A stretch of 64,000 nt of DNA from Kordiimonas sp. SCSIO 12603. GTDB lineage: Bacteria; Pseudomonadota; Alphaproteobacteria; Sphingomonadales; Kordiimonadaceae. The position numbers and the translations under genes were made by a program. Of the stretch, positions 47,701 to 63,209 are shown piece after piece. Numbering within the stretch: position 1 is the stretch's first letter; each line of letters starts with the position of its first letter. The DNA is taken from contig NZ_CP073748.1 in NCBI RefSeq assembly GCF_024398035.1, forward strand, positions 735,501-799,500. The letters are read 5' to 3'. The notes under the pieces were generated by a model. That model did not search any database. It worked only from the letters and a program-made list of their open reading frames with translations, and was not told the origin of the DNA.

Positions 47701-50700
47701 AAGGTGAAGCTGTCACCATTCAGATTAGTAATTACTGGTGGATTGGGGCTTACAACGATGGTGAAGTTGGCGGTGGAATCCTCATCGCCACCGTTTGCTG
47801 TACCTCCATTATCATTGAATGTAAGCGTAAAAGTACGGCTATCGACACCCGATGGACCTTCGTATAAGAGGTTCTGAAGCAAGGTGGAGTAAGTAATTGG
47901 ATCTCCGGCAGTATTAACGAAATTAAGGACTAGAGTATTACCGCCCTGACCATCATCTGTAGCATCAACTGTAGCAATAGTGACGCCATCTACCTGAATG
48001 TCTTCACCTGCTGAGATTATTGCATCCCCGCCGGATGTCACTGTTGTACCATCAACAGACCAATTGCCATTTGTGGTGCCAGTATTTTGAGAAATAGTAA
48101 GGGAACCGCCGCCAAAATCTGTTGAATCGTGATCTGTTACAGAAGCATCATCCAAGAGAGTGATGTTAGTTGCTCCGTTCCCAGACACAATAGTAGAGCT
48201 TTCGCCATCTACACCGGAGATGATTGGTGCGTCATTCACCGCTGTTAGTGATACAGTGGAGATTAGATTAGGTGTTGAATTATTATCACCACCATTTGCT
48301 GTACCGCCATTATCTGAAATATCTGTAATTGTAACTACGCGATTGCCGGTTGGATCTGGGTTGTCGCTGGTGTTGCTGTAAGTGAGCCCATCCACCAATG
48401 TCTGGAACTGTGCGGATGTAAGGGTTTCACCAGAGAAGCTCACTGTTGCCGTTGAACCTGTGACCGATACAGAAACATCAAGACCATTCGTGGCTGTAGT
48501 CACCATCGTACCGTTGGTGAGAGTCACATCTGAGCCGTCAATGCGCAATATCTCATTCGCGCCATTAGAAACATTGGTGACCGTTAGGGTCATGGATGAG
48601 AAGCTATCAGCACTTTCAATGGTAGATGCAGATACAGTGTTAAACAGATCTTGCGCCGCACCACCTTCAACGAAGGTTGGGTTACCGCCCGTCGCCGTTA
48701 GTGTTGGTGCATCATTCACATTGGTAACCGAAACAGTTGTTGAACCAGTGACCGTGCCAGGGTTGTCGCCTGTGCCCTGAGCGTCGCCGCTGTTGCCGTC
48801 ACTGAAGGTCCAGTTAAGCTGAATGCTGGCGGATGGGGTATCGCTGCTGTTTGAATAACGAACAGCTTGAAGAACTTCATTCACCAGTGCTGTTGTTGGT
48901 GTGGTACCGTTATCTGCGAATGTAACGGTAAGCTGACCATTGACAGACCCTGTATCAAATGTAGCGATAACATTACCGCCTGCGGAGATATTGTTGCCAG
49001 AGACAGTCAGGTTACCGCCTGTAGTGAAAGCATAAGCGTCACTCGCATTCGCACCACCATTGCGCACGATAGTGAGAGTAGCGCCCGAATAATCACCATT
49101 ACCGCTGTTTAAACTGCCAAGTTCAATATCGGCTATTGATACATTGTTATCCAGTATAACGGCGCTACCACCTTCTGTGTAGGTGGGCGTATTATCTAGG
49201 TTGGAGAATACGGGCGCATCATTAACTGCAGCAACCGCTATAGATGCTGTGTCTGCTGCGGCTGAGAAGGCTGTTGCTCCTCCGTTTGTTGTCGTATCTG
49301 CTGTGCTGCCATTGCTACCGCTTGATTGGTCCCATGCGCGGAATGTAATGGTCGCAGAACCACTGTAATTTTCACCTGGCACAAAGCGCACTAATGCTGT
49401 TGAAGAGAGAAGCCTTGATGCGGATGAAAGATCAACTGTGCCGGAAGTAGCAGAAAAGGCATTCCAATTGCTACCGCCATCTACAGAAAATTCCCAAACA
49501 CCATTGGTGTTATCCACGGCGGTTACAGCGATCGCTTCAACAGCACTACCATCAACATCCGTGATTGAACCGTCAGCGACGATAGAAGCAACGGTTGAAC
49601 CGCCATTGTTCGTATTATTGGAGGCGTCGTCATCACCGTCTACACCTGAATTATCATCATCTCCAGCATCTTCAGATATCCCCATTAATGTTGGGGACAG
49701 AGCGGCATTTAGGCCGGGTGCATCATTCACAGCTGTAATGTCGAAATTAGAAGTTCCAACCGTTACAAAGTTTGGGTCTTCAGCTTCGTCATCATCAACG
49801 GCAATAGTTAATGTTGCCGCATCATCGCCGCTGTCATTTGATGCACCTGTGTATGTTACATTACTCACCGTATCCAGATAGGTTTCAATGTTATCCAGTG
49901 TGCCGTTCAGCGTGAGGACAGAGGTACCATCGCCGGAAACAGAAACACTACCGCCAGATGAAGCAGAAAGTGTTCCTTCACTTGCTGTAAGTCTTACAAA
50001 AACAGTGCCTGTGCTATCCACATCGGTGAAATCAACGCCAGATAGATCAACATTTGATGCTGTATCTTCCATAACTGATATATCATTAGGTACACCTGTT
50101 GCTGTAGGTGCATCATTTGCTGCAGCTACGTCAGCGTTAATGGTGCCAAGCACTATATCGCTGGTATCCTCATCTCTTGCTGTAATCGTGAATGTGGATG
50201 TATTATCACCATTATCGTTGAGGGCAGGTGTCCAGCGGAGATTGCTGAACGTATCCAGATAGGTATTGATGTCTGCAGGAGCACCCGCAAGTGTGATTGT
50301 TGTAGCATTCACCAGTGTTTCTGTAACACCACCGCCAACGCCGGCGCCGTCTGCTGGTGCGCTGAATGTACCTTCACTGGCTGTGATGGTTACAGTGATG
50401 TTATCACCATCTACATCCTCAAAAAGAGTAGAAGGTATAGCTAAATTGCTTGTTGTGTCTTCAAGGAAATCAACATCATCCGGTATACCTGTTGCTGTCG
50501 GAGCATCATTTACAGCGGTGATATTTACATTAACAGTGCCTATGGCCACATTGCCGGAACCATTGCCATCGTTTGCGGTTACGGTGATAGTGGCTGCAGC
50601 GTTGCCGCTTACATTAGAAGCCCCAGTGTATTGAATGTTGGATGCCGTATCCAGATATGTGTTGATATCAGCTGGTGCACCCGCAAGCGTGATAGTAGTT

Positions 50701-52679
50701 GGGTTTACAAGTGTTTCTGTAACACCTGAACCATCAGCTGGTTGAGCAAAGGTTCCAGCAGATGCTGTGAGGGTGACTGTAATGCTGGCGCTGTCAACAT
50801 CGCTGAACACAGTAGTGCCAAGATCGATGTTGCTCAATGTGTCTTCAGTTACTGTAACTGAGGGGGGGAGGGTAGCTGCTGCTGGATCATCATTCGCAGC
50901 GGTAATATTTACGTTAACGGTGCCTATGGCCACATTGCCGGAACCATTGCCATCGTTGGCGGTTACGGTGATGGTGGCTGCAGCGTTGCCGCTTACATTA
51001 GAGGCCCCGGTGTATTGAATGTTGGATGCCGTATCCAGATATGTGTTGATATCAGCTGGTGCACCCGCAAGCGTGATAGTAGTTGGGTTTACAAGTGTTT
51101 CTGTAACACCTGGACCATCAGCCGGTTGAGCAAAAGTTCCAGCAGATGCTGTGAGGGTGACTGTAATGCTGGCGCTATCTATGTCGCTAAACGCTGTAGT
51201 GCCAAGATCGATGTTGCTCAATGTGTCTTCAGTTACTGTAACTGAGGGTGGAAGGGTGGCTGCTGCTGGATCATCATTCACAGCGCTGATAGAGATGTTC
51301 ACTGTATCAGTAGTGCCATTCACGGTACCGTCATTTGGGGTAACTGTCAGAACTGCTGTTGTTGTGTCATTGGACGCAGTTGTGAATGTGATATGTGATG
51401 TATCGTTCAGATAAGTATTAAGCGCTGCAGCAGTACCCTGCAGAGTCATTGAAGCTGTGCCAGAACCAGCAATCGTCACACCACCGAATGTACCATTTGT
51501 ATCTATAGAGGCAATGGTGCCGCGGTCGACAGCTAGTGTAAGAGTGATGGTGTCACCTGCATCAGCATCAGAAATATTATAGGCAGACAGATCAATGGCT
51601 GTCGCGACATCTTCCGTTGCGGTGTCATCTGCAGGTGTGCCGCCCAATTCGGGCGCACTGTTAGACGGACCAGAAGCAGTAAACGCAATTTCGTCAACAC
51701 CAAGTTGCCATGTTTCCGTTCCTGAATAAGATACAGTTATTTGAGTTACATTCGTCCAGTCTGCAGGACTATAGACCTGAACAGAATCACTTAATTCTGG
51801 AGCATTAGAAGCAACGGTTATGGTTGTTCCATTACCATTTGTAACATCTATGGTATAATTTCCGCCGTCGTTCGCATTCGCGAACTCCAAAATTTGGAAA
51901 CTTGAAATATCCACAGCACTATCGAAAGAAATTGTATAGCTGTCGCCTTGCGACAACGCTGACGGGCTAACCCCGTTTCCAACAATGGCGGGCGACACGG
52001 AAAAAATAGTTGAAGCTCTAGTAATAGTAACGGTAACGCCGTCAACTGTTTCCGTTATTGTGTCCGTTCCGCTCCCGGATGCCGTATTGAAGCTAAATGT
52101 GCCCAATGTGCCCATGAAACTCGTTTTTTTACCGTCAAATGGTAAAGGGTGGTTTAGTAAGTTTGGGTTATATTCAAGTTCCCAGTTCCCATTATATTTA
52201 GGAAACCCAGTTAAAGTTTCTGAAGCTACGACAGCAATTCCAATTTTATTTTCAAGAGCATCAATAAATGAACGTCCCTCTTGGTTTTTGGCAATTTCAC
52301 AACCATAAAGATGGAGGGTGGCATCATCTTCTGTAACGGAGATAAGAGTATTCAGTAGCTCCGCATAGTCATCTAGAGTTTCGGTTGTTAGGTGTTCACC
52401 GGCTAAATTAAGCTGACCAACATTACCGTGAGATAAAATGGAGATAGAGGAAACATTGCTCACTCCCTTTAGGGCATCTACTAATCCAGCAATGCCTTCA
52501 TCGGGATCAAGCATAATCACATGCGCATCAGGTGAAATTCCCTCAAGAAGATTTTCATACCCTTCAACAGATTTATCAATAACCACAATATCAAGCACCG
52601 CATTCTTTGCCGGTGTATCCGTTAGGGCGGATTTACTGTGTGGAATTGGTGAAAATGTGCCAGTGCGATTAAATGTCAT
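44712..52679 (-). CDS. Giant DUF4347-cadherin-VCBS-RTX surface or secreted protein
   Basis: The 2655-residue protein is one intact frame. Residues about 28-185 form a DUF4347 domain (DIVVIDKSVEGYENLL; LHLYGCEIA). Then about 15 cadherin-like or immunoglobulin-like repeats follow, each closing near VNDAP, with two VCBS-type repeats at about 2200-2396. Residues about 2418-2576 are glycine-rich RTX nonapeptides (GGAGNDIIMGG, GGTGNDIIHNG) that bind Ca2+. The last 75 residues carry an acidic, hydrophobic end (ESNVILF) like a type I secretion signal. There is no N-terminal signal peptide. The HlyB/HlyD/TolC exporter is not in the window. It is probably an adhesin or biofilm protein. It contains two nearly identical 384-bp repeats. 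Confidence 0.9.
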   Translation of the reverse strand: MTFNRTGTFSPIPHSKSALTDTPAKNAVLDIVVIDKSVEGYENLLEGISPDAHVIMLDPDEGIAGLVDALKGVSNVSSISILSHGNVGQLNLAGEHLTTETLDDYAELLNTLISVTEDDATLHLYGCEIAKNQEGRSFIDALENKIGIAVVASETLTGFPKYNGNWELEYNPNLLNHPLPFDGKKTSFMGTLGTFSFNTASGSGTDTITETVDGVTVTITRASTIFSVSPAIVGNGVSPSALSQGDSYTISFDSAVDISSFQILEFANANDGGNYTIDVTNGNGTTITVASNAPELSDSVQVYSPADWTNVTQITVSYSGTETWQLGVDEIAFTASGPSNSAPELGGTPADDTATEDVATAIDLSAYNISDADAGDTITLTLAVDRGTIASIDTNGTFGGVTIAGSGTASMTLQGTAAALNTYLNDTSHITFTTASNDTTTAVLTVTPNDGTVNGTTDTVNISISAVNDDPAAATLPPSVTVTEDTLSNIDLGTTAFSDIDSASITVTLTASAGTFAQPADGPGVTETLVNPTTITLAGAPADINTYLDTASNIQYTGASNVSGNAAATITVTANDGNGSGNVAIGTVNVNITAANDDPAAATLPPSVTVTEDTLSNIDLGTTVFSDVDSASITVTLTASAGTFAQPADGSGVTETLVNPTTITLAGAPADINTYLDTASNIQYTGASNVSGNAAATITVTANDGNGSGNVAIGTVNVNITAVNDAPTATGIPDDVDFLEDTTSNLAIPSTLFEDVDGDNITVTITASEGTFSAPADGAGVGGGVTETLVNATTITLAGAPADINTYLDTFSNLRWTPALNDNGDNTSTFTITARDEDTSDIVLGTINADVAAANDAPTATGVPNDISVMEDTASNVDLSGVDFTDVDSTGTVFVRLTASEGTLSASSGGSVSVSGDGTSVLTLNGTLDNIETYLDTVSNVTYTGASNDSGDDAATLTIAVDDDEAEDPNFVTVGTSNFDITAVNDAPGLNAALSPTLMGISEDAGDDDNSGVDGDDDASNNTNNGGSTVASIVADGSITDVDGSAVEAIAVTAVDNTNGVWEFSVDGGSNWNAFSATSGTVDLSSASRLLSSTALVRFVPGENYSGSATITFRAWDQSSGSNGSTADTTTNGGATAFSAAADTASIAVAAVNDAPVFSNLDNTPTYTEGGSAVILDNNVSIADIELGSLNSGNGDYSGATLTIVRNGGANASDAYAFTTGGNLTVSGNNISAGGNVIATFDTGSVNGQLTVTFADNGTTPTTALVNEVLQAVRYSNSSDTPSASIQLNWTFSDGNSGDAQGTGDNPGTVTGSTTVSVTNVNDAPTLTATGGNPTFVEGGAAQDLFNTVSASTIESADSFSSMTLTVTNVSNGANEILRIDGSDVTLTNGTMVTTATNGLDVSVSVTGSTATVSFSGETLTSAQFQTLVDGLTYSNTSDNPDPTGNRVVTITDISDNGGTANGGDNNSTPNLISTVSLTAVNDAPIISGVDGESSTIVSGNGATNITLLDDASVTDHDSTDFGGGSLTISQNTGTTNGNWSVDGTTVTSGGDAIISAGEDIQVDGVTIATVDATDDGQGGNTLVLNFVNTAGDPITYSTLLQNLLYEGPSGVDSRTFTLTFNDNGGTANGGDEDSTANFTIVVSPNPPVITNLNGDSFTFTEGDSASNLDISSNLTVTDADSANFNGGDLTISVTANQEAEDRLVIDTSGNISLSAGQTAGSTVSVGGTAIGTIDSGATGGSNEDLIVSLNSNATPALVQELLRTIQYNNVEANTPTDSNRTVSITLSDGTGATSNAAEVTVNVNPVNTIPVLDTALPTDLTFTEDTSGNVDLSSSTIGDLDSTSITVTITASEGTFGTPADGGSSVVETLVNPTTITLVGSPADISTYLDTASAITWTPTANDTGNDTSTFTITANDGDGSDNVTLGTVNADITAVDDTPTATGVPSDIIVTEDTASNVDLSGVDFSAVDNPSNVTIRLTASDGTLAATSSGGVTISGSGTSVISLQGTLTNIEAYLDTASNVTYTSTLDSNGDDAAILTIAVDENDTIGFVNVSTSGIDITATNDNPAVTGLPADIEFTEDTANALDLSSLSFTDVDSNSITVTLTANEGTFSAPSSGTSVGAGVTATLVNNTTITLTGSPADISTYLDTTTVINWTPAPNDNGDNASTFTITANDTNGSGDVELGTINADITSINDIAVIRGDVTGTIAENEPGTLTGNLTSIDLDNRNDSFRADIVNGTYGQLIISADGSWGYEVNSTVDAVNQLNVGDTLTDTLQVRSEDGTPQAIVITITGSDDAPVLSGDIFGEVIEDGTPISGTISLTDVDDTDPTFPDVAPTLGANGFGVFTLTSGTWTYTPTPEGLDLSDGETATDNISFTASDGSTHVVTVTIIGVGTNSGNVSTPEDDNIRLSDADNEITLLGGEDTVDAGAGDDTVTASTEDDDPLFIDGGLGDDMITSGNGNDTIFGGGDADVVNTAGGNDLVFAGIGDMGDDSVSGSAGDDTLGGGAGNDIIMGGNDNDLIWGRQGNDTLFGGTGNDIIHNGQGNDLVEGGAGNDMLWGSAGDDTLSGGAGADAFVFGAEIGDDVITDFDTTEDTIELFDPAHDFADFAAFIGAATQDGTSVRIALADDQSILLENVSLSDLTESNVILF
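50509..51276 (-). repeat. Two near-identical tandem 384-bp repeats in the giant gene
   Basis: The block coding for one cadherin-like domain of 128 residues occurs twice head to tail; for example TATGGCCACATTGCCGGAAC is found at 50541 and 50925. Only a few residues differ (such as TTAFSDID versus TTVFSDVD). The boundaries are approximate. The other domains of the protein are much more diverged, so this looks like a recent duplication or ongoing homogenisation. Confidence 0.85.
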
Positions 52680-53017: not shown

Positions 53018-53109
53018 AACAAATTATAGTTGCGTTTCTTAGTATTTTTCACATCTATTTTAAACCTTGCATGCGATCCATGAAAGGCATGCATTTAGGA
53101 GGGGGTATC

Positions 53110-53757
53110 ATGGAAGCATTTATGGGAACAATTTTGGCCTTTGGTTTTAACTATGCGCCAAGAGATTGGGCAATGTGCCAAGGACAGCTTGCTGCAATAG
53201 CAAACCAAACGGCTCTTTATTCGCTTTTAGGCACTATATATGGTGGCGATGGACGTACTACTTTTGCGTATCCTGAACTTCGTGGTCGTTCTGGAGTTAG
53301 CTTTGGGCAACAGCCCGGCTTCAACCTCTACGTACAAGGTCAATTGCAGGGGGCTACTAATATACATCTCAGCCAGGCACAAATGCCCCAACACACTCAC
53401 ACACATTCATATAATGGCTCTGCTGGTGGTGATGTAACTTTGGAAGGCTCCCTAAGTGTAGCTGAAACCCATGGCACCAAACAAATCCCAGATGCTGGCG
53501 ATTACATAGCTGCACCAAGCAATAGCTTTGGTTCCGCGCTTGAAGGGAAATTATATGTTACTCCTGCAGAAGCAGCCTCGGTTGGAACAGTACCGGTAGG
53601 CGGGTTAGCATTATCAGCAAGCGGTGGCGGCAGCTTTGATAATGCCTCTTTTACGATTAACCAAACCGGCTCCAGTAGCGACATAAACATTCAAAACCCA
53701 GTTACTGTCCTTAATTACTGCATAGCAATAGAAGGGATTTATCCACCTCGCAGTTAG
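53110..53757 (+). CDS. Tail-collar domain (MdpB-like) protein 2
   Basis: The 215-residue protein is a larger relative of the product at 41641: MGTILAFGFNYAPRDWAMCQGQ, YGGDGRTTFAYPELRGR, MPQHTHTH, and an ending LNYCIAIEGIYPPRS. The central 90 residues, rich in Gly and Ser, are an insert the shorter protein lacks. The ATG at 53110 follows TTTAGGAGG. It is the first gene of a three-gene unit with the DUF6916-like and GNAT genes, divergent from the giant RTX gene. No signal peptide is seen. Confidence 0.88.
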   Translation: MEAFMGTILAFGFNYAPRDWAMCQGQLAAIANQTALYSLLGTIYGGDGRTTFAYPELRGRSGVSFGQQPGFNLYVQGQLQGATNIHLSQAQMPQHTHTHSYNGSAGGDVTLEGSLSVAETHGTKQIPDAGDYIAAPSNSFGSALEGKLYVTPAEAASVGTVPVGGLALSASGGGSFDNASFTINQTGSSSDINIQNPVTVLNYCIAIEGIYPPRS

Positions 53758-54875: not shown

Positions 54876-55352
54876 CTACAGTTCTGGGGCCACATAGGTG
54901 AGCGGCAGCGCGGTGGACGACATATTGTTGACCAGACAGATGTTTGAGTTGATTTCCCGAACGCCTTTGGCCTTTGAAAGGCTCTCCCAAAAGAACTCCT
55001 TATAATCAGCCACTGAGGGCACCACGATTTTGAGGAGAAAATCATAATCCCCCATCATGGTATGGCATTCAAGAACCTGGGGATATTGGTAAGCGTAATC
55101 CGCAAAGCTTTCCAGTGAGCTGCTGTCATGCTTGTTCATTTTTACATGAGCGAACACGGTAATTCCGAGGCCGATTTTTTCCTGATTAACGATTGCAACT
55201 CTATCGCGGATATACCCCTTATCCACCATATGTTGGATACGCCTGCCACATACGGATTTGGATGATCCTATTTTCTCTGCAAGCGCACTGAGCGAAATCA
55301 TGCAGTCTTGCTGTAGTTCTTCTAGGATTTTGAAATCTATCGCATTAAGCAT
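54876..55352 (-). CDS. Lrp/AsnC family transcriptional regulator 1
   Basis: The 158-residue protein has an N-terminal winged helix (IDFKILEELQQDCMISLSALAEKIGSSKSVCGRRI) and a C-terminal RAM domain (HTMMGDYDFLLKIVV) that senses amino acids. The usual Lrp ending (SSTALPL) is reached, followed by eight extra residues. AGGGAC precedes the ATG. It is the outermost gene of the lysine region and is convergent with the GNAT gene. Confidence 0.9.
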   Translation of the reverse strand: MLNAIDFKILEELQQDCMISLSALAEKIGSSKSVCGRRIQHMVDKGYIRDRVAIVNQEKIGLGITVFAHVKMNKHDSSSLESFADYAYQYPQVLECHTMMGDYDFLLKIVVPSVADYKEFFWESLSKAKGVREINSNICLVNNMSSTALPLTYVAPEL

Positions 55353-55781: not shown

Positions 55782-56207
55782 TTAGGTTTCTTTCTTAGCG
55801 GACAGCACCAGTGACGTTGTGGTTTTATTCACCCCATTAATGGCGCAGATGAAATCAAGAGTTTGGTCAATTTCTTCCAGTGATGGTGCTTTGATAATAG
55901 CGATCAGATCATAACTGCCGCTTACCACATAAAGCTTTTTAATTGCCTGATGGGTTTTCATCAGGCCGATGGCTTGCTGCGCATATTTTTGATCTATCGA
56001 TAAAAGCACATGGGCGGAAATAAGCTTCTGCGCATAATCAGGGTGGTGCCGTACTGTGAAGCCGGAAATGATTTTCCGGTCCATCAAACGGTTGATCCGG
56101 TCTTGTACAGTGGAGCGCGAAAGCCCCAACTTTCTGGCAAGAGATGAGGTGGATTCCCGGCCATCAATTGTCAGTAGTTCCAGCAATTTTTCATCTGTAG
56201 TGTCCAT
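55782..56207 (-). CDS. Lrp/AsnC family transcriptional regulator 2
   Basis: The 141-residue protein has a winged helix (EKLLELLTIDGRESTSSLARKLGLSRSTVQDRINRL) and a RAM domain (VVSGSYDLIAIIKAPSLEE). It is divergent from the HglS gene with 146 bp between them, so it is the prime candidate for control of the lysine catabolic genes, with lysine or a pathway intermediate as effector. Confidence 0.92.
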   Translation of the reverse strand: MDTTDEKLLELLTIDGRESTSSLARKLGLSRSTVQDRINRLMDRKIISGFTVRHHPDYAQKLISAHVLLSIDQKYAQQAIGLMKTHQAIKKLYVVSGSYDLIAIIKAPSLEEIDQTLDFICAINGVNKTTTSLVLSAKKET

Positions 56208-56353
56208 GTCGTTAAAATGCCGGGTGTGCCGTTAATATGTCAATCAATAGTTTGTAATTTGCACAATATTCTTATTTCTTCTTATGAAACTGCTCCCTAA
56301 ATTCCTCGCAAACCCATTAGGGGTGTTTCTATTGTTTAGTTCGAGGTCCCGTC

Positions 56354-57754
56354 ATGAAACAACAAGCCTTTGTTCCTGCTCATGAAATTAGAGCATCTTT
56401 CACAGCTGCAATGTCTGAAATGTACCGCACTGAAGTGCCAGCATACGGCACTCTTGTTGATCTTGTGGAAGAGATTAATGGGGAAACCCTGAAGGGAAAC
56501 ACTGGGCTAAAACAGTCTCTCACGCTATCTGGTGGTCTTGAACGCCTTCAGGATGAACGCCATGGGGCTATTCGTCTTGGCAAGCCGGAAGAGCTGTCTA
56601 TGATGCGCCGTGTGTTTGCGATTATGGGGATGTTGCCGGTAAGCTATTATGATCTGAGTATCGCGGGTATCCCTGTACACTCCACAGCATTTCGCCCAGT
56701 TGATAAAGTTGAGCTCGAAAAGAACCCTTTCCGTATTTTTACATCACTTTTACGCCTTGATATGATCAAGGATGAAAGCCTGCGCGCTGCTGCTGCTGCT
56801 GTTCTTGAAAAACGAGATATTTTTACAAACGGCGCATATGTACTCGTAGAAAAAGCAGAAAACGAAGGGGGACTATATGCAGAAGATGTGAAAGCTTTTG
56901 TTGCAGAAGTTCTTGAAACTTTCCGGTGGCACAGTGAAGCAGCTGTAAGCGAAGAACTTTATGAACGCCTACATAGTGCACACCGATTAGTTGCTGATGT
57001 GGTTTCTTTCAAAGGTCCACATATTAATCACCTAACTCCCTGCACGCTTGATATCGATAAAGTGCAGGCGGATATGCCGAAAAAAAACATCTCCCCTAAA
57101 GCAGTTGTTGAAGGGCCGCCATCGCGCAAATGCCCGATCCTACTGCGCCAAACATCGTTTAAAGCACTGAATGAACAAGTGAATTATCAGGAAGAGGATG
57201 GCAGTTTTAAAACAGGTTCCCATACCGCACGGTTCGGTGAAATTGAACAGCGTGGCTGTGCGTTAACACCAGCAGGCCGGGCTTTATATGATGAGCTTCT
57301 TCTTAAGGCGCGGGCAGAAATTACACCGGATGCAAGTGGTGAAAATGCTGGCGTATATATTGAAAATCTTGAAAAGACCTTTGCTGACTTCCCTGATACA
57401 TGGGATGGACTCCGCCGTGAAAAACTCGCTTATTTTGTGTACAGTCTTACTGCAAATGCAGAGGGAATACGGCTAGACACAGCTGTGCCTCTGGAAGATC
57501 TCGTTGCTGATGGTCTCGTTGAGTTTGCGCCAGTGATTTATGAAGATTTCCTACCTGTAAGTGCAGCGGGTATTTTCCAATCTAATCTCGGTGATGAAGC
57601 GGCCCAGGACTTTATTGAGCTGCCTAACAAAGCGTTGTTTGAAAATGCGTTAGGCGCGAAGGTTTTGGATGAGTTTGAGCTTTATGCGTCAATGGAAGAA
57701 GCTTCGATTGCAGCTTGTTTTGCTGGACTTGGCTTGAAAGGACGAGCAGCATAA
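56354..57754 (+). CDS. hglS: 2-oxoadipate dioxygenase/decarboxylase (HglS, DUF1338)
   Basis: The 466-residue protein is a VOC-fold Fe(II) enzyme that turns 2-oxoadipate and O2 into D-2-hydroxyglutarate and CO2. The essential residues reported for Pseudomonas putida HglS, as I recall them, fall at the same numbers: His70 and Arg74 in ERHGAIRLG, and His226 in GPHINHLTP. The third ligand is a Glu in RFGEIEQRG (residue 296 or 298). It shares a TAATG junction with the next gene, D-2-hydroxyglutarate dehydrogenase, which uses its product. Earlier annotation names are ydcJ or DUF1338. Confidence 0.93.
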   Translation: MKQQAFVPAHEIRASFTAAMSEMYRTEVPAYGTLVDLVEEINGETLKGNTGLKQSLTLSGGLERLQDERHGAIRLGKPEELSMMRRVFAIMGMLPVSYYDLSIAGIPVHSTAFRPVDKVELEKNPFRIFTSLLRLDMIKDESLRAAAAAVLEKRDIFTNGAYVLVEKAENEGGLYAEDVKAFVAEVLETFRWHSEAAVSEELYERLHSAHRLVADVVSFKGPHINHLTPCTLDIDKVQADMPKKNISPKAVVEGPPSRKCPILLRQTSFKALNEQVNYQEEDGSFKTGSHTARFGEIEQRGCALTPAGRALYDELLLKARAEITPDASGENAGVYIENLEKTFADFPDTWDGLRREKLAYFVYSLTANAEGIRLDTAVPLEDLVADGLVEFAPVIYEDFLPVSAAGIFQSNLGDEAAQDFIELPNKALFENALGAKVLDEFELYASMEEASIAACFAGLGLKGRAA

Positions 57755-59178
57755 TGATGCTGAAAGCAGAACAAAAAGAAGTGCTGATTGGTATTCTGGG
57801 CGATACTGGTTTTGTTGAAAATAGAGCGGATAAGGCCGCCTACGAAAGCGGTGCTCGTTATGATAATGGTGCAGCACTTTTTGTTGCTCGCCCTCAAAAT
57901 ACAGAACAGGTCTCAAAGCTGCTTGCTTACTGTGTGGCGGAAGAAATTTGCCTTGTGCCTCAGTCTGGTAATACCGGACTGGTTTCTGCCTCAACGCCAG
58001 ACGGCACAGGCGCACAGGCAGTTTTAAGCCTGGACCGCATGAACCAGATTGCTGATCTGGATGTTTACAATCGCAGTATCCACGTGGGTGCTGGGGTCAA
58101 ACTTTCAGCCCTTAATGATGTGCTTGAGAAAGATGGAATGTTCTTTCCCATTGATTTGGGCGCTGACCCCTGTATCGGTGGAATGGTCGCGACTAACACC
58201 GGCGGTACACGTTTCGTGCGGTATGGTGATGTTCGACAGAATTTGCTAGGGCTCAAAATAGTACTCGCAGATGCTGAAGGAACGGTGCTCGATTTCACAA
58301 ACCCTATTCGCAAGAATAATACTGGACCAGATTGGAAGCAGATGTTCGTGGGCACAAGTGGTGTGTTTGGTGTGATAACTGAGTGTGTTTTGAATGTTGT
58401 TCCTAACCCGAAACAATCCTCATCTGTATTGCTTGTACCGACAGGATTTGAGACTGTGAATAGCTTGCTTGTGAACATGGAGCGTTTGTTTGGTTCGTCT
58501 TTCACTGCCTTTGAAGGTATGTCTAAAAATGCGGTTGAAGCAGCCTTTGATCATGTGCCATCACTTTCAAATCCGTTTCCGGGTGGAGAAATCCCTGATT
58601 ATGTTATTTTGGCTGAAATTTCGCGAGATTGGCTTCCAACAGAAAGCGAAATGTCACTAGAGGACATGCTGGAAAATGCCTTAGCCAGTATTTGGGAGCA
58701 GGACGAGACGCCTCTCGCAGATGCCTTTATGGGACGCAGTGAAAACATGTGGGCTATCCGCCATGCGCTTTCAGAAGGTGTGAAAAATCTAGGGCAACTG
58801 ATTGCTTTTGATGTTTCTTTCAGGCGCGGTGATGTAATGGCGTTTACGGCTTATATGGCAAAGGCGCTTCCAGAAAAGTTCCCGGATGTGAAAATCTGCG
58901 ATTTTGGCCACATAGGGGATGGGGGCTTGCACTTCAATTTGGTTGTCCCGAACGACGATACTTACCTTACGTCTGTGGAGTTTGAACGTGAACTTCGGGA
59001 CTGGGTGTATAGCATTACGGTTGAGAAGTTTGGCGGTAGTTTCAGCGCGGAGCACGCAGTTGGCCCGAAAAACCAGCGATATTATGATCTTTATACACCG
59101 AATTCCGTTAAAAAGCTCGCAGCAGCATTCATGGCAAACGCATCTGTGTTGCAACTAGGGAATACCCATTTTTCGTAA
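57754..59178 (+). CDS. D-2-hydroxyglutarate dehydrogenase, FAD-dependent
   Basis: The 474-residue flavoprotein has a VAO-type FAD domain (LVPQSGNTGLVSAS; GGMVATNTGGTRFVRYGD) and a C-terminal oxidase domain with GHIGDGGLHFNLVVP, the metal/substrate segment. It oxidises D-2-hydroxyglutarate to 2-oxoglutarate and passes electrons to an acceptor such as ETF or quinone. Its ATG overlaps the HglS stop codon, so the toxic intermediate is produced and consumed by coupled products. A glycolate or D-lactate dehydrogenase is the main alternative, but context settles it. Confidence 0.88.
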   Translation: MMLKAEQKEVLIGILGDTGFVENRADKAAYESGARYDNGAALFVARPQNTEQVSKLLAYCVAEEICLVPQSGNTGLVSASTPDGTGAQAVLSLDRMNQIADLDVYNRSIHVGAGVKLSALNDVLEKDGMFFPIDLGADPCIGGMVATNTGGTRFVRYGDVRQNLLGLKIVLADAEGTVLDFTNPIRKNNTGPDWKQMFVGTSGVFGVITECVLNVVPNPKQSSSVLLVPTGFETVNSLLVNMERLFGSSFTAFEGMSKNAVEAAFDHVPSLSNPFPGGEIPDYVILAEISRDWLPTESEMSLEDMLENALASIWEQDETPLADAFMGRSENMWAIRHALSEGVKNLGQLIAFDVSFRRGDVMAFTAYMAKALPEKFPDVKICDFGHIGDGGLHFNLVVPNDDTYLTSVEFERELRDWVYSITVEKFGGSFSAEHAVGPKNQRYYDLYTPNSVKKLAAAFMANASVLQLGNTHFS

Positions 59179-59205
59179 GCTAACCATATATTATAAAATG
59201 ATTTT

Positions 59206-59231
59206 AAGGCTGCATATTGTGCGGCCTTTTT
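59206..59231 (+). terminator. Terminator after the D-2-hydroxyglutarate dehydrogenase gene
   Basis: AAGGCTGCA and TGCGGCCTT pair (one G-T) around a 5-nt loop, followed by TTT. The saccharopine genes downstream therefore have their own promoter in the 59232-59396 gap. Confidence 0.7.
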
Positions 59232-59396
59232 CATTGCTACCGTAAGGGAAAAGCTATTTAGACGGAATCAAATTGCCGGAAGAAACTTTAGATAAAAACC
59301 GATTTAACGGAAATATCCTTCAATATGCCTATTTAGAGCCGACAATATGCTTCGTACACTTGATTAAAGTATAAAAATGATCGAAGTGGGTGGATT

Positions 59397-60488
59397 ATGT
59401 CAGAGTTTGAGCTGTGGTTAAGGGAAGAGTTTCGCTCCACTGAGCGCCGGACACCGCTTTTGCCTGAGGGAGCAAAAGAACTAGTTGATGCCGGGGTGAA
59501 AGTTGTTGTTGAAGAATCTGAAAAACGGATTTTCTCGAATGAAGCCTATGCTGAAACAGGCTGCGAGCTTGTTAAAGCTGGCAGCTGGCAGCGCGCCCCT
59601 CGGTCCGCTACTATTTTGGGTTTGAAGGAACTTCCAAGTCAACCTTGTGCGCTTAGAAACACTCATGTGTATTTCGCTCACGCCTTTAAAGAACAGGCTG
59701 GCTGGCAGGATTTGTTAACACGTTTTGAAGTGGGCGGTGGAAACCTTCTTGATATCGAATATATGGTAGATGCAAATGCCTGCCGTGTTGTGGCATTTGG
59801 TTACTGGGCTGGTTATATGGGCGCAGCTCTTGCCCTGATGCAGTGGTATGACCGAAAAGCTGGACGTTCTTCTACGATTGCTAAAGAGCTTCAGCCGTTT
59901 AATTGTGCTGATACGCTCGATGAAATCATCCGTAATCTGAAAACAGAAGGTGATGCACCAAAAGCGCTCGTTATTGGCGCAGGTGGCCGTAGTGGTAAAG
60001 GTGCTGCTGAAATCCTAGAGCGTCACGGTATTGCAGTTACAAAATGGGGCCGCAAGGAAACAGCTGATCTGGATCGCTCAGTCATTCTTGAGCATGATAT
60101 ATTGGTGAATTGCTCCTTTGTGGCGGATATGATCCCACCATTCCTGCGCAAGGAAGATCTTGTTGAGGATATGAAGCTTCAGGTTATTTCGGATGTATCA
60201 TGTGATCCGTTTAGTGAATTTAACCCATTACCGCTTTATGAAGCACCAACCCCTTGGGATGCACCATTCGTAACTGTGGAAAACGGTTCTGCGTCTCTTG
60301 ACCTGATTGCTATTGATAATTTGCCGTCGCTCCTCCCGAAAGAAGCAAGTGATGAGTTTGCAGGCCTTCTCCTTCCTTATTTGAAGACACTTGGCAAGCC
60401 AGAAGCTGACCCTGTTTGGGCTGCTTCGAAAGCTTCATTTGATGCAGCGTGTGAACAGATGCATGCTGCAATCAAGATTGCGTCTTAA
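59397..60488 (+). CDS. Saccharopine dehydrogenase (L-lysine-forming type, Lys1-like)
   Basis: The 363-residue protein has an alanine-dehydrogenase-like N-terminal domain (RTPLLPEGAKELVDAGVKVVV) and a Rossmann domain with VIGAGGRSGKGAAEIL for NAD(H). The family links saccharopine with L-lysine plus 2-oxoglutarate. In fungi it makes lysine; here, with a glutamate-forming partner and a semialdehyde dehydrogenase, it most likely acts as lysine-ketoglutarate reductase in breakdown. Direction is an inference from the cluster. Confidence 0.9.
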   Translation: MSEFELWLREEFRSTERRTPLLPEGAKELVDAGVKVVVEESEKRIFSNEAYAETGCELVKAGSWQRAPRSATILGLKELPSQPCALRNTHVYFAHAFKEQAGWQDLLTRFEVGGGNLLDIEYMVDANACRVVAFGYWAGYMGAALALMQWYDRKAGRSSTIAKELQPFNCADTLDEIIRNLKTEGDAPKALVIGAGGRSGKGAAEILERHGIAVTKWGRKETADLDRSVILEHDILVNCSFVADMIPPFLRKEDLVEDMKLQVISDVSCDPFSEFNPLPLYEAPTPWDAPFVTVENGSASLDLIAIDNLPSLLPKEASDEFAGLLLPYLKTLGKPEADPVWAASKASFDAACEQMHAAIKIAS

Positions 60489-60510
60489 ATCGGGCTAAGG
60501 AGTTTTGAGT

Positions 60511-61665
60511 ATGACAAAAGCTGTACACTGGATTGGCGCTGGTCTTGCGTCTGCACCTGGTATTGTGTCTTTGGCTGGAAAGCTCGAGAAACTTACCGTT
60601 TGGGATATGGATACCACGCGGGCTGAACACCTGAAGGCTAGTATTACTGTGGGTGAATTATCCGTTGCCAAACTTGATCTTAATGATGATGCATCAGTTC
60701 TGAATTTCACCAATCACCTCCATAAAGGCGATGTGGTTGTTTCCATGCTGCCAGCATTTCTTCATGTAAGAGTGGCAGAGATCGCGCTGGCAAAAGAAGC
60801 GAACCTTGTTACATCCAGCTATCTTTCAAGTGAGATGGTACTTCTGGAAGAAAAGGCGAAAAAAGCTGGCGTTGCACTTGTGAACGAAGCTGGGCTTGAT
60901 CCTGGAATTGATCATCTTTTTGCACATGTTCTTGTGGATGCAGCGAAGGAAGCGGATGTACTTGGCCGTGGCCGTCATGTGGAATTTGTTTCTCATTGTG
61001 GCGGTATTCCGGCGGAAGCGACAGAATTTACTTATAAGTTTTCATGGACGCCACTTGGTGTTCTGACTGCACTTAAGAATTCCGCCCGCTATATCTATGA
61101 AGGAAAAACCAAAGATATTTCTCGTGCCTGGGAAGCGGTGAGTGAGCTTGATATCTTGGGTGAAGTATTTGAGGTTTATCCAAACCGCAACAGTATGCCT
61201 TACATCAAGGAATATGGTCTTGATAAAGAACCGGGACTTCATACCTTTGTGCGAGGCACTCTGCGTATGGGTGGTTGGAAAAAGGCTTGGGCTGATATTT
61301 TCACGCAGGTGGAACATGCTTCTCAGGAAGACCTAAAGACACTTTCAGAAAAACTATGGAATGAGCACACATATTCTGATGGTGAAGAAGATCGGGTCGT
61401 GCTTTATGTTGGCCTGAAAGTGAAAGATGAAACAGGCAGTGAGTGGCAAGCTTCGCTCGCACTTGATGAAGTGGGTAGTGGTTTAAATACCGCGATGGCA
61501 CGTACAGTTTCGCTCACTGTGGCTGAGGCGGTGAAAGCCGTATTAAGAGATGAATTTGAACCAGGTGTACATGCCGCGACAGAGAATGTAGCACATGCAA
61601 AACTTTGGTTAGAGGGACTGGCTGAGAGCGGTATTAAAACCATCGCTCAGGGCATTGAAATTTAA
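60511..61665 (+). CDS. Saccharopine dehydrogenase (L-glutamate-forming type, Lys9-like)
   Basis: The 384-residue protein begins with a Rossmann fold (VHWIGAGLASAPGIVSLAG) and contains VNEAGLDPGIDHLFA and SHCGGIPAEATEF, hallmarks of the glutamate-forming enzyme. It splits saccharopine to 2-aminoadipate semialdehyde and glutamate. The ATG at 60511 follows AAGGAG; it is 22 bp after the previous gene. In animals and plants this and the Lys1-like activity are fused as LKR/SDH; here they are separate but adjacent. Confidence 0.92.
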   Translation: MTKAVHWIGAGLASAPGIVSLAGKLEKLTVWDMDTTRAEHLKASITVGELSVAKLDLNDDASVLNFTNHLHKGDVVVSMLPAFLHVRVAEIALAKEANLVTSSYLSSEMVLLEEKAKKAGVALVNEAGLDPGIDHLFAHVLVDAAKEADVLGRGRHVEFVSHCGGIPAEATEFTYKFSWTPLGVLTALKNSARYIYEGKTKDISRAWEAVSELDILGEVFEVYPNRNSMPYIKEYGLDKEPGLHTFVRGTLRMGGWKKAWADIFTQVEHASQEDLKTLSEKLWNEHTYSDGEEDRVVLYVGLKVKDETGSEWQASLALDEVGSGLNTAMARTVSLTVAEAVKAVLRDEFEPGVHAATENVAHAKLWLEGLAESGIKTIAQGIEI

Positions 61666-61697
61666 GAAGAATAAACACTTAATTTAAGGGAAAGATG

Positions 61698-63209
61698 ATG
61701 AACATCGAACAGATTTATGCTGATCTGGGCCTTACAGACGCAGACCTGAAAACAGGTAGTTTGAAAGTTGAAAGCCCAATCGATGGTGCTGAAATCGCAA
61801 GTGTGAAAACACACACAGAAGCTGAGGCAGATGCGATTATCGCGAAATCCAAAGCTGCGTTCAAAGAATGGCGCAATGTACCGGGCCCACGCCGCGGTGA
61901 ACTTGTTCGCCTGCTTGGCGAAATTCTTCGCGAGAAGAAAGAAGCACTTGGTGCGCTCGTAAGCCTTGAGTGTGGTAAAATTTACCAAGAAGGTCTTGGT
62001 GAAGTTCAGGAAATGATCGATATCTGTGACTTTGCAGTTGGCCTTAGCCGCCAGCTTTATGGTCTTACAATCGCATCTGAACGCCCAGGCCACAAGATGC
62101 GTGAATATTGGCAGCCAATCGGCCCTGTTGGTATCATCAGTGCATTCAACTTCCCTGTAGCCGTTTGGGCATGGAATGCGGCGCTTGCACTTGTGTGTGG
62201 TGATAGCACAATCTGGAAACCGTCTGAGAAAACACCGGTAACAGCTATTGCTTGTCAGAAACTGTTTGATGAAGCTGTGAAGCGTTTTGGTGATGATGCG
62301 CCGGAAGGTCTTTCTCAGGTTCTTGTTGGTGAGCGAGAAATCGGTGAAGTGCTTGTAAACGATAAGCGCGTACCAGTTATCTCAGCAACAGGTAGCTGTG
62401 CGATGGGCCGTATTGTCGGACCTAAAGTGGCTGCACGTTTTGGTCGTAGCATTCTTGAGCTTGGTGGTAACAATGCAATTATCGTGGCACCGTCAGCTGA
62501 TCTGAACCTTGCTTATCAAGGTATTCTGTTTGGTGCTGTGGGTACGTGCGGCCAGCGCTGTACATCAACACGCCGTATCTTTGTACACGAAGAAGTATAT
62601 GACGAGTTGGTGCCGCGCCTGAAGAAAGGTTATAAAGGCCTGTCTATTGGTAGCCCGCTTGATGATAAAACACTGGTTGGGCCGCTGATTGATGAACAGT
62701 CATTTAACGCTTTTGAAGCAGCGCTTGAGCTTGCTCAGAAAAATGGTGGTGAAATCACTGGCGGTGGCCGTGCGCTCGCAAGTGAATACCCGAATGCATA
62801 CTATGTAAATCCAGCCATCGTTGAGATGACAGGTGATGTAGATAACGTGCAGGAAGAAACATTTGCACCAATCCTTTATGTGTTCAAATACACTGATCTG
62901 GAAGAAGCAATTGTGCGCCAAAATGATGTACCGCAGGGCCTTTCTTCTGCGATCTTCACACGTGATGTACTTGAAGCTGAAATCTTCACATCTGAAAGCG
63001 GTAGTGATTGCGGTATCGCTAACGTAAACATCGGTACATCCGGTGCGGAAATCGGCGGTGCATTCGGCGGTGAAAAAGAAACTGGCGGCGGCCGTGAAAG
63101 TGGTTCCGATGCTTGGAAAGCATACATGCGCCGCATGACAAGCACACTCAATTATTCAAAAGAATTGCCTCTTGCACAGGGCATCACATTCGGTGGTGAT
63201 GACGAATAG
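61698..63209 (+). CDS. 2-aminoadipate semialdehyde dehydrogenase (ALDH7/antiquitin type)
   Basis: The 503-residue enzyme has the ALDH7-type stretch REYWQPIGPVGIISAFNFPV, the general base Glu in LELGGNNA and the catalytic Cys in GQRCTSTRR. It oxidises 2-aminoadipate semialdehyde to L-2-aminoadipate with NAD+. The second of two tandem ATG codons is favoured by spacing to AAGGGA; 61695 is the alternative. It is the last gene of the saccharopine operon and ends in a strong terminator. Confidence 0.92.
   Translation: MNIEQIYADLGLTDADLKTGSLKVESPIDGAEIASVKTHTEAEADAIIAKSKAAFKEWRNVPGPRRGELVRLLGEILREKKEALGALVSLECGKIYQEGLGEVQEMIDICDFAVGLSRQLYGLTIASERPGHKMREYWQPIGPVGIISAFNFPVAVWAWNAALALVCGDSTIWKPSEKTPVTAIACQKLFDEAVKRFGDDAPEGLSQVLVGEREIGEVLVNDKRVPVISATGSCAMGRIVGPKVAARFGRSILELGGNNAIIVAPSADLNLAYQGILFGAVGTCGQRCTSTRRIFVHEEVYDELVPRLKKGYKGLSIGSPLDDKTLVGPLIDEQSFNAFEAALELAQKNGGEITGGGRALASEYPNAYYVNPAIVEMTGDVDNVQEETFAPILYVFKYTDLEEAIVRQNDVPQGLSSAIFTRDVLEAEIFTSESGSDCGIANVNIGTSGAEIGGAFGGEKETGGGRESGSDAWKAYMRRMTSTLNYSKELPLAQGITFGGDDE

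What the first reader, a model, noticed from the sequence alone, without database searches (positions are those of the whole stretch)
55782..63209. Plant-type lysine catabolism (saccharopine plus HglS and D-2-hydroxyglutarate dehydrogenase) in one bacterial cluster
Two adjacent saccharopine dehydrogenases and an ALDH7-type dehydrogenase convert L-lysine to 2-aminoadipate. HglS and a coupled FAD dehydrogenase convert 2-oxoadipate to 2-oxoglutarate by way of D-2-hydroxyglutarate. In Pseudomonas putida HglS serves D-lysine breakdown; the union with the saccharopine branch is what plants are thought to use. Here both halves sit together behind an Lrp regulator, with HglS His70, Arg74 and His226 in place. 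The aminotransferase for 2-aminoadipate is missing from the cluster.
Basis: partly seen in the sequence, partly recalled or inferred. Interest (0 to 1): 0.72.

Follow-up and report, generated by a model that had tools for sequence, protein, structure and literature searches.

The report
Plant-like lysine breakdown cluster in Kordiimonas
A marine bacterium appears to carry, side by side, genes for both halves of the lysine-breakdown route that plants are thought to use; each half was already known separately in bacteria, and seeing them joined looks uncommon and like the exchange of ready-made gene modules.

Summary
In a Kordiimonas close to K. laminariae, one cluster encodes an Lrp/AsnC regulator, HglS, a human-like D-2-hydroxyglutarate dehydrogenase, a LYS1-type lysine-2-oxoglutarate reductase (LKR), a saccharopine dehydrogenase and an ALDH7 enzyme. 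HglS and ALDH7 pass their NCBIfam cut-offs; HglS keeps its metal and substrate residues. The genome has lysA, so the saccharopine genes are best read as catabolic: L-lysine -> saccharopine -> 2-aminoadipate -> 2-oxoadipate -> D-2-hydroxyglutarate -> 2-oxoglutarate. No aminotransferase is in the cluster; the genome shows only generic candidates.

Each half is known in bacteria; the union looks rare. In a sample of 387 alphaproteobacterial genomes, 12 have full-length HglS and 12 a strong LKR; only this one has both. Three of 19 Kordiimonas genomes have both, linked within 6 kb, in two gene orders. Elsewhere hglS often neighbours ALDH7, an aminotransferase or a pipecolate-oxidase-like gene. In 14 of 18 Kordiimonas genomes viewed, ALDH7 instead sits beside a thiamine-diphosphate enzyme, usually after LKR-SDH or a lysine-dehydrogenase-like gene. 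Entry and exit modules seem to be exchanged around ALDH7; the thiamine enzyme is a candidate 2-oxoadipate decarboxylase. New variant of a known kind.

The parts
55782..56207 (-). lrp2, Lrp/AsnC-family regulator, divergent from hglS
   Evidence: PF13404 and PF01037 above cut-off; best NCBIfam hit LysM 91.8 bits, below its cut-off of 180; 69-82% identical genes beside lkr or hglS in relatives
56227..56245 (.). weak match to the palindrome found in relatives' lrp2-lkr gaps
   Evidence: 97th of 127964 scored positions in the window; inconclusive
56354..57754 (+). hglS, 2-oxoadipate dioxygenase/decarboxylase
   Evidence: NF049974 701.8 bits, cut-off 550; active-site residues kept
57754..59178 (+). 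FAD-dependent D-2-hydroxyglutarate dehydrogenase, ATG overlapping the hglS stop (the ORF list starts at an upstream TTG, 57715)
   Evidence: 6lpn human D2HGDH E 8.4e-51; TAATG junction
59294..59312 (.). weak match to the same palindrome, in the gap before lkr
   Evidence: 78th of 127964 scored positions in the window; inconclusive
59397..60488 (+). lkr, LYS1-type lysine-2-oxoglutarate reductase / saccharopine dehydrogenase (L-lysine-forming)
   Evidence: 237 bits to 3ugk; the only match in the genome
60505..61665 (+). sdh, saccharopine dehydrogenase (L-glutamate-forming); ATG at 60511 after AAGGAG is the likelier start
   Evidence: PF16653 and PF03435 above cut-off; 1e5l, 5l78; start region
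61695..63209 (+). ALDH7-type L-piperidine-6-carboxylate / 2-aminoadipate-semialdehyde dehydrogenase
   Evidence: NF050084 813.6 bits, cut-off 730; 6dbb and antiquitin structures

Best explanation
The cluster is an L-lysine catabolic locus. LKR condenses L-lysine with 2-oxoglutarate to saccharopine; SDH splits saccharopine to glutamate and 2-aminoadipate semialdehyde; ALDH7 oxidises the latter to L-2-aminoadipate; an aminotransferase encoded elsewhere gives 2-oxoadipate; HglS (Fe(II), O2) decarboxylates and hydroxylates it to D-2-hydroxyglutarate; the FAD dehydrogenase oxidises that to 2-oxoglutarate, which re-enters LKR or the TCA cycle. Lrp2 may control both transcription units. The locus probably arose by joining an hglS-D2HGDH exit module, elsewhere often part of pipecolate/D-lysine-like operons, to LKR-SDH and ALDH7 of Kordiimonas. 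Shown here: gene identities, conserved residues, recurrent linkage. Inferred: flux and direction, regulation, the aminotransferase, the evolutionary path.
For: Family, cut-off and structure matches for all enzymes and HglS active-site residues. lysA present. Six-gene set kept in K. laminariae and, rearranged, in G008: 3 of 3 genus genomes that have hglS also have lkr within 6 kb. hglS-D2HGDH adjacent in 5 of 11 other alphaproteobacterial hglS loci and ALDH7 near in 4 of 11. In relatives lrp2 is divergent from lkr.
Against: No biochemical evidence. No aminotransferase in the cluster; the 2-aminoadipate transaminase model finds nothing over its cut-off in the genome. The presumed alternative ThDP gene persists in the HglS genomes. 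Co-occurrence within the genus is not significant by count alone (P 0.087). The operator found in relatives is only weakly present in the window, and its half-site is not enriched over the window (11 found, 12.4 expected).
Confidence: 0.75

Rival explanations
1. The two halves are neighbours but serve different substrates: LKR-SDH-ALDH7 makes 2-aminoadipate or an osmolyte from lysine, while HglS-D2HGDH handles 2-oxoadipate from D-lysine or pipecolate, as in Pseudomonas.
For: In G008 the halves are separate convergent units. In the window a 218-bp gap separates d2hgdh from lkr. Other alphaproteobacterial hglS loci can carry a pipecolate-oxidase-like gene. Links of bacterial lysine breakdown to osmotic stress are reported (passages).
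Against: No pipecolate-oxidase-like gene is in the window's cluster. ALDH7, shared by both routes, sits at the end of the lkr unit in the window and G008 and not elsewhere in this genome at more than 35% identity. I did not search the genome for pipecolate oxidase or D-lysine genes.
Confidence: 0.1
2. HglS is accessory: 2-oxoadipate from lysine is mainly consumed by the unlinked ThDP enzyme, as proposed here for other Kordiimonas, and HglS-D2HGDH is a minor or conditional branch.
For: A 77% identical ThDP homolog is in the window's genome at C1:1083910-1085550; in 14 of 18 genus genomes viewed it sits beside ALDH7.
Against: In all three HglS genomes of the genus the ThDP gene has no ALDH7 beside it, and ALDH7 sits with lkr, sdh and hglS instead. 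The ThDP enzyme's substrate is unknown.
Confidence: 0.12
3. LKR-SDH works in the synthetic direction (2-aminoadipate to lysine), and HglS drains surplus 2-oxoadipate.
For: LKR is of the LYS1 type, which in yeast works in lysine synthesis (recalled; one search gives the match).
Against: lysA of the diaminopimelate route is present; ALDH7 runs the opposite way; relatives put ALDH7 behind LKR-SDH too. Homocitrate synthase and aminoadipate reductase were not searched for.
Confidence: 0.03

Closest known systems
Plant lysine catabolism (LKR/SDH, ALDH7, HglS homologs AT1G07040 and FLO7, D-2-hydroxyglutarate dehydrogenase)
   Same: Same proposed chain of reactions from L-lysine to 2-oxoglutarate (PMC7286885 and PMC7253579: abstract, sections or passages).
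   Different: Here LKR and SDH are separate genes and LKR is LYS1-type; HglS is the bacterial kind, where plant homologs are about 15% identical (PMC7286885); no chloroplast or mitochondrion is involved; all but one enzyme lie in one cluster.
Pseudomonas putida D-lysine/pipecolate route with HglS
   Same: HglS (6w1g, 506.9 bits), D-2-hydroxyglutarate as intermediate, a piperidine-6-carboxylate dehydrogenase.
   Different: Entry by saccharopine in place of pipecolate; the dehydrogenase is human-like, not YdiJ (62.6 bits against 1350).
Alphaproteobacterial hglS operons, e.g. on Agrobacterium plasmid pTiCFBP4996
   Same: hglS, FAD dehydrogenase and ALDH in one operon.
   Different: LysR-family regulator and an aminotransferase in the operon; no LKR or SDH near any of the 11 class-sample loci.
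Kordiimonas lrp2-LKR-SDH-ThDP-ALDH7 clusters (e.g. K. gwangyangensis)
   Same: Orthologous lrp2, LKR, SDH; ALDH7 of the same lineage (94/90 support).
   Different: A ThDP enzyme (PRK08199 subfamily, 848.9 bits against 539) sits where the window has no gene, and there is no HglS.
Ruegeria (Silicibacter) pomeroyi saccharopine pathway
   Same: Bacterial lysine catabolism by saccharopine (passages, PMC4334477).
   Different: No HglS linkage described in the passages seen; R. pomeroyi's genome was not compared here.

Membership tests
HglS (2-oxoadipate dioxygenase/decarboxylase) | Match above the curated equivalog cut-off | tested here: met
   NF049974 701.8 bits, cut-off 550; PF07063 517.8, cut-off 25
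HglS (2-oxoadipate dioxygenase/decarboxylase) | His-His-Glu metal triad and the 2-oxoadipate-binding arginine | tested here: met
   H70, H226, E296 and R74 (reference residues from PMC7286885)
HglS (2-oxoadipate dioxygenase/decarboxylase) | Turns 2-oxoadipate into D-2-hydroxyglutarate | not testable with these tools
   Needs an enzyme assay
D-2-hydroxyglutarate dehydrogenase (human-like, FAD) | Closest solved relative is D2HGDH; GHxGDGxxH and SxEHxxG motifs | tested here: met
   6lpn E 8.4e-51, next 3pm9 2.7e-48; motifs at 398 and 444 (their role recalled). No curated model covers it; GlcD 146.8 of 567.9 and YdiJ 62.6 of 1350 bits are not met
D-2-hydroxyglutarate dehydrogenase (human-like, FAD) | Activity on D-2-hydroxyglutarate rather than D-lactate or glycolate | not testable with these tools
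   D-lactate dehydrogenase and glycolate oxidase chains also match, more weakly
Lysine-2-oxoglutarate reductase, LYS1 type | Full-length match to LYS1, with the residues aligned to yeast Lys77 and His96 | tested here: met
   3ugk residues 4-368, 237.1 bits; both aligned residues kept (their catalytic role recalled)
Plant LKR/SDH | LKR and SDH fused in one polypeptide | tested here: not met
   Two ORFs, 59397-60488 and 60505-61665
Saccharopine dehydrogenase (L-glutamate-forming) | Both Pfam domains above cut-off | tested here: met
   PF16653 140.6 and PF03435 54 bits; 1e5l E 2.2e-44
ALDH7 / L-piperidine-6-carboxylate dehydrogenase | Match above the curated equivalog cut-off | tested here: met
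   NF050084 813.6 bits, cut-off 730
Complete L-lysine to 2-oxoglutarate pathway | 2-Aminoadipate aminotransferase in the cluster | tested here: not met
   None in the ORFs of the cluster
Complete L-lysine to 2-oxoglutarate pathway | 2-Aminoadipate aminotransferase in the genome | tested here: inconclusive
   NF049976: five matches, best 437.6 of 650 bits; a 57% identical relative of an hglS-linked class-I aminotransferase
Complete L-lysine to 2-oxoglutarate pathway | Carbon from L-lysine passes through saccharopine and D-2-hydroxyglutarate | not testable with these tools
   Needs labelling or mutants
Lrp2 regulon | Operator shared by both promoters | tested here: inconclusive
   Full palindrome in 4 of 4 relatives' gaps examined; only weak sites in the window

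The most novel reading that the evidence does not exclude
Lysine catabolism in Kordiimonas is a plug-in system around ALDH7: entry is LKR-SDH or a lysine-dehydrogenase-like enzyme; exit is HglS-D2HGDH or an undescribed ThDP-dependent 2-oxoadipate decarboxylase (NCBIfam PRK08199 subfamily) that makes glutarate semialdehyde. The window shows the plant combination assembled convergently by changing the exit module.
Probability: 0.3. Interest if true: 0.66.

Novelty: new variant of a known kind. Interest (0 to 1): 0.52.

Why it matters
If the flux is confirmed, this is a compact bacterial model of the full plant-style L-lysine route; in plants the HglS step rests on coexpression, mutant phenotypes and in vitro assays (PMC7286885, sections read). 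It also gives a natural comparison: related species with the same ALDH7 lineage but different entry and exit genes. And it points to a thiamine enzyme subfamily as a candidate for a reaction that has no assigned bacterial gene in the papers I could search.

Tried and rejected
Lysine synthesis by the saccharopine genes: unlikely, given lysA. Chance neighbourhood: unlikely, linkage in 3 of 3 genus genomes with hglS, though two of the three are near-identical. Import of ALDH7 together with hglS from another alphaproteobacterial operon: not favoured; the ALDH7 of the window, G016 and G008 groups with the ThDP-linked Kordiimonas ALDH7s, but support is moderate (94/90) and the tree has 17 rows. A strict ThDP-for-HglS exchange: not supported; G024 and G027 also have the ThDP gene without ALDH7 beside it and have no HglS, and G013, G017 and G020 have ThDP-ALDH7 without an entry gene there. 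A shared operator: inconclusive; half-site TTRACGG 11 found against 12.4 expected in the window, TTRACGGAAA 1 against 0.32. Co-occurrence by count alone: not significant in the genus (P 0.087), and the lack of other co-occurrences in the class sample is no avoidance (0.31 expected).

Literature: no description of this union was seen in the listings. Searches listed only 10 of 141, 10 of 32 and 6 of 241 papers, in an open-licence library without most subscription journals. '2-oxoadipate decarboxylase' gave 0 papers. Passages of PMC9007349 did not bear on the question.

The odds of the best explanation are my first statement of them in well-formed shape.
Full report
WHAT IS THERE. The window lies in a complete 3.85-Mb genome. 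Its LKR is 98% identical to that of Kordiimonas laminariae, so the host is a Kordiimonas close to that species. The cluster at 55782-63209 holds a divergent Lrp/AsnC regulator, hglS, an FAD dehydrogenase, lkr, sdh and an ALDH7 gene. The hglS stop and the dehydrogenase ATG share one base (TAATG). The next ORF downstream starts about 0.6 kb on; the ORFs after it look by eye like ABC-transporter and arsenic-type genes (not searched).

ENZYMES. HglS scores 701.8 bits against a cut-off of 550 and aligns nearly end to end with P. putida HglS 6w1g. The metal ligands (His70, His226, Glu294 in P. putida; PMC7286885 section 6) and Arg74 are kept, the Glu at 296 here. The FAD enzyme's closest solved relative is human D-2-hydroxyglutarate dehydrogenase; it is far below the cut-offs of GlcD and YdiJ. 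LKR is LYS1-type (237 bits), with 76 bits to the human AASS chains, over residues 9-143. SDH matches Magnaporthe saccharopine reductase and human AASS. ALDH7 passes the L-piperidine-6-carboxylate dehydrogenase cut-off; the other 12 matches to it in the genome are at most 35% identical.

DIRECTION AND MISSING STEP. One lysA match is above cut-off, so lysine is very likely made by the diaminopimelate route and LKR-SDH is best read as catabolic. The cluster lacks an aminotransferase. The 2-aminoadipate transaminase model gives five matches in the genome, none over its cut-off, best 437.6 of 650 bits. The aminotransferase of one alphaproteobacterial hglS locus finds four matches, the best 57% identical at C1:3297243-3298421, with a UvrB-like ORF and, by eye, no lysine gene in the 11 kb viewed. 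Both are candidates only.

HOW COMMON IS THE UNION. In a sample of 387 alphaproteobacterial genomes (the same settings in both calls, and by their shared handles the same sample), HglS matches at E<=0.001 in 19: 12 full-length (446 bits or more) and 7 short, of 61-96 bits. The LKR query matches in 29: 12 strong (279 bits or more), one of 94 bits (G171) and 16 weaker. Only the window's genome has full-length HglS and strong LKR. At the raw threshold G310 and G353 would count too, but their LKR matches cover 112 and 88 residues at 31% and 36% identity, and I dropped them. These limits were set after seeing the scores, and a single-protein query would miss LKR of other subfamilies. By chance 0.31 other co-occurrences were expected, so this shows rarity, not avoidance. 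None of the 11 other full-length HglS loci has LKR or SDH in the 7-8 kb fetched on each side, and none of the 11 other genomes with strong LKR has an HglS match. Among plasmid records 77 have HglS and 12 have LKR. Of the 60 HglS records listed, one (Embleya NZ_CP108785.1) is also in the LKR list, the best places about 1.8 Mb apart; 17 HglS records were not listed there.

WITHIN KORDIIMONAS. Of 19 genus genomes searched, HglS is in 3 (G000, the window's own; G008; G016) and LKR in 9. All three with HglS have LKR within 6 kb. G008 has lkr-sdh-aldh7 facing d2hgdh-hglS, with lrp2 beyond. Trees put HglS (92/90, 14 rows) and D2HGDH (98/97, 8 rows) of the three together, and LKR inside a clade from the same order (100/97, 11 of 23 rows; G001's LKR is missing from the tree because my ORF caller skipped it). 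I infer that the exit module entered once and was rearranged, and that LKR is native.

WHERE THE HALVES COME FROM. In the 11 other class-sample HglS loci a D2HGDH-type gene is adjacent in 5 and ALDH7 is near in 4. Of the neighbours I searched, two (L073, L075) carry a class-I aminotransferase domain and two (L071, L073) an FAD oxidoreductase domain; the one in L071 scores 460.8 bits to the L-pipecolate oxidase model, under its cut-off of 600. Three annotated plasmids that I picked from the hits each show hglS, ALDH and an aminotransferase; an FAD-binding oxidoreductase directly follows hglS in one.

In Kordiimonas without HglS, ALDH7 sits beside a thiamine-diphosphate enzyme (PRK08199 subfamily, 848.9 bits against 539). 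I viewed the place of this ThDP gene in 18 of 19 genus genomes (G009's match is a contig fragment). Eight have lrp, a 364-aa saccharopine-dehydrogenase-like gene, ThDP and ALDH7. Five have lrp2-LKR-SDH-ThDP, with ALDH7 next in four and the contig ending inside ThDP in the fifth (G007). Two have ThDP-ALDH7 without an entry gene. Three, which are the three HglS genomes, have ThDP without ALDH7. So ThDP and ALDH7 are neighbours in 14 of 18. Of eight further family genomes viewed, five have the 364-aa gene with ThDP-ALDH7, one has ThDP-ALDH7, two have ThDP without ALDH7; none has HglS. The other two family genomes (G019, G026) have only distant ThDP matches. The 364-aa protein has both saccharopine-dehydrogenase Pfam domains and matches 3abi (E 5e-23), which I recall as a lysine dehydrogenase; the call names it only PH1688. 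The entry genes thus differ at one chromosomal place while ThDP-ALDH7 mostly stays, and in HglS genomes ALDH7 lies with LKR-SDH and HglS-D2HGDH. I infer that the ThDP enzyme may consume 2-oxoadipate. Against this: it is kept in HglS genomes, some ThDP-ALDH7 pairs have no entry gene, and its nearest solved relatives are acetolactate-synthase-like.

REGULATION. The lrp2-lkr gaps of G005, G007, G011 and G012 each hold a palindrome CCGTYAAWTTRACGG (G001 was not examined). A matrix from these finds only weak sites in the window's two gaps (97th and 78th of 127964 positions) and, in G008, its best site of the 18-kb stretch before lkr but none of note before hglS. Control by Lrp2 is plausible, not shown.

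KNOWN OR NEW. HglS and its role are known in Pseudomonas and proposed for plants (PMC7286885: abstract, passages, sections 6 and 9). Bacterial saccharopine catabolism is reported for R. pomeroyi (passages of PMC4334477; general statements in passages of PMC7253579 citing Neshich 2013, which is not held). P. inhibens was reported not to use saccharopine (passages of PMC5653290). I saw no description of the union in the searches named under Tried and rejected. The finding is a new combination of known enzymes with a real comparative signal, not a new kind of system.

Noticed in passing
L048:11538-13247 and G000:C1:1083910-1085550: A ThDP enzyme of the PRK08199 subfamily neighbours ALDH7 in 14 of 18 Kordiimonas genomes viewed; a candidate 2-oxoadipate decarboxylase, also present unlinked in the window's genome.
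   Followed up: partly
L062:7768-8862: A 364-aa saccharopine-dehydrogenase-like gene replaces LKR-SDH in front of ThDP-ALDH7 in 8 of 18 Kordiimonas genomes viewed; a candidate lysine dehydrogenase.
   Followed up: partly
L040:16311-17612: Near lrp2 in G008 lies a class-III aminotransferase: GABA transaminase model 607.4 of 506.65 bits, 2-aminoadipate transaminase model 462.3 of 650; it may or may not serve the missing step.
   Followed up: partly
L044:8001-10243: G005 has a second, more distant LKR-SDH pair (46% and 41% identical to the window's) with no other gene of the set in the stretch fetched.
   Followed up: no
L114:5985-12630: The plasmid HglS match ranked first (64.3%) belongs to a LysR-hglS-FAD oxidoreductase-ALDH-aminotransferase run on the Agrobacterium plasmid pTiCFBP4996.
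   Followed up: partly
window 54876-55352: A second Lrp/AsnC-family regulator lies on the far side of lrp2; it is kept in K. laminariae and was not seen beside the G008 cluster.
   Followed up: no
window 53071-53757: An ORF with a Phage Tail Collar domain (PF07484, 80.2 bits) lies upstream of the cluster.
   Followed up: no
window 44712-52679: A 2655-aa ORF of long internal repeats with a glycine- and aspartate-rich, calcium-binding-like C-terminal part (by eye).
   Followed up: no
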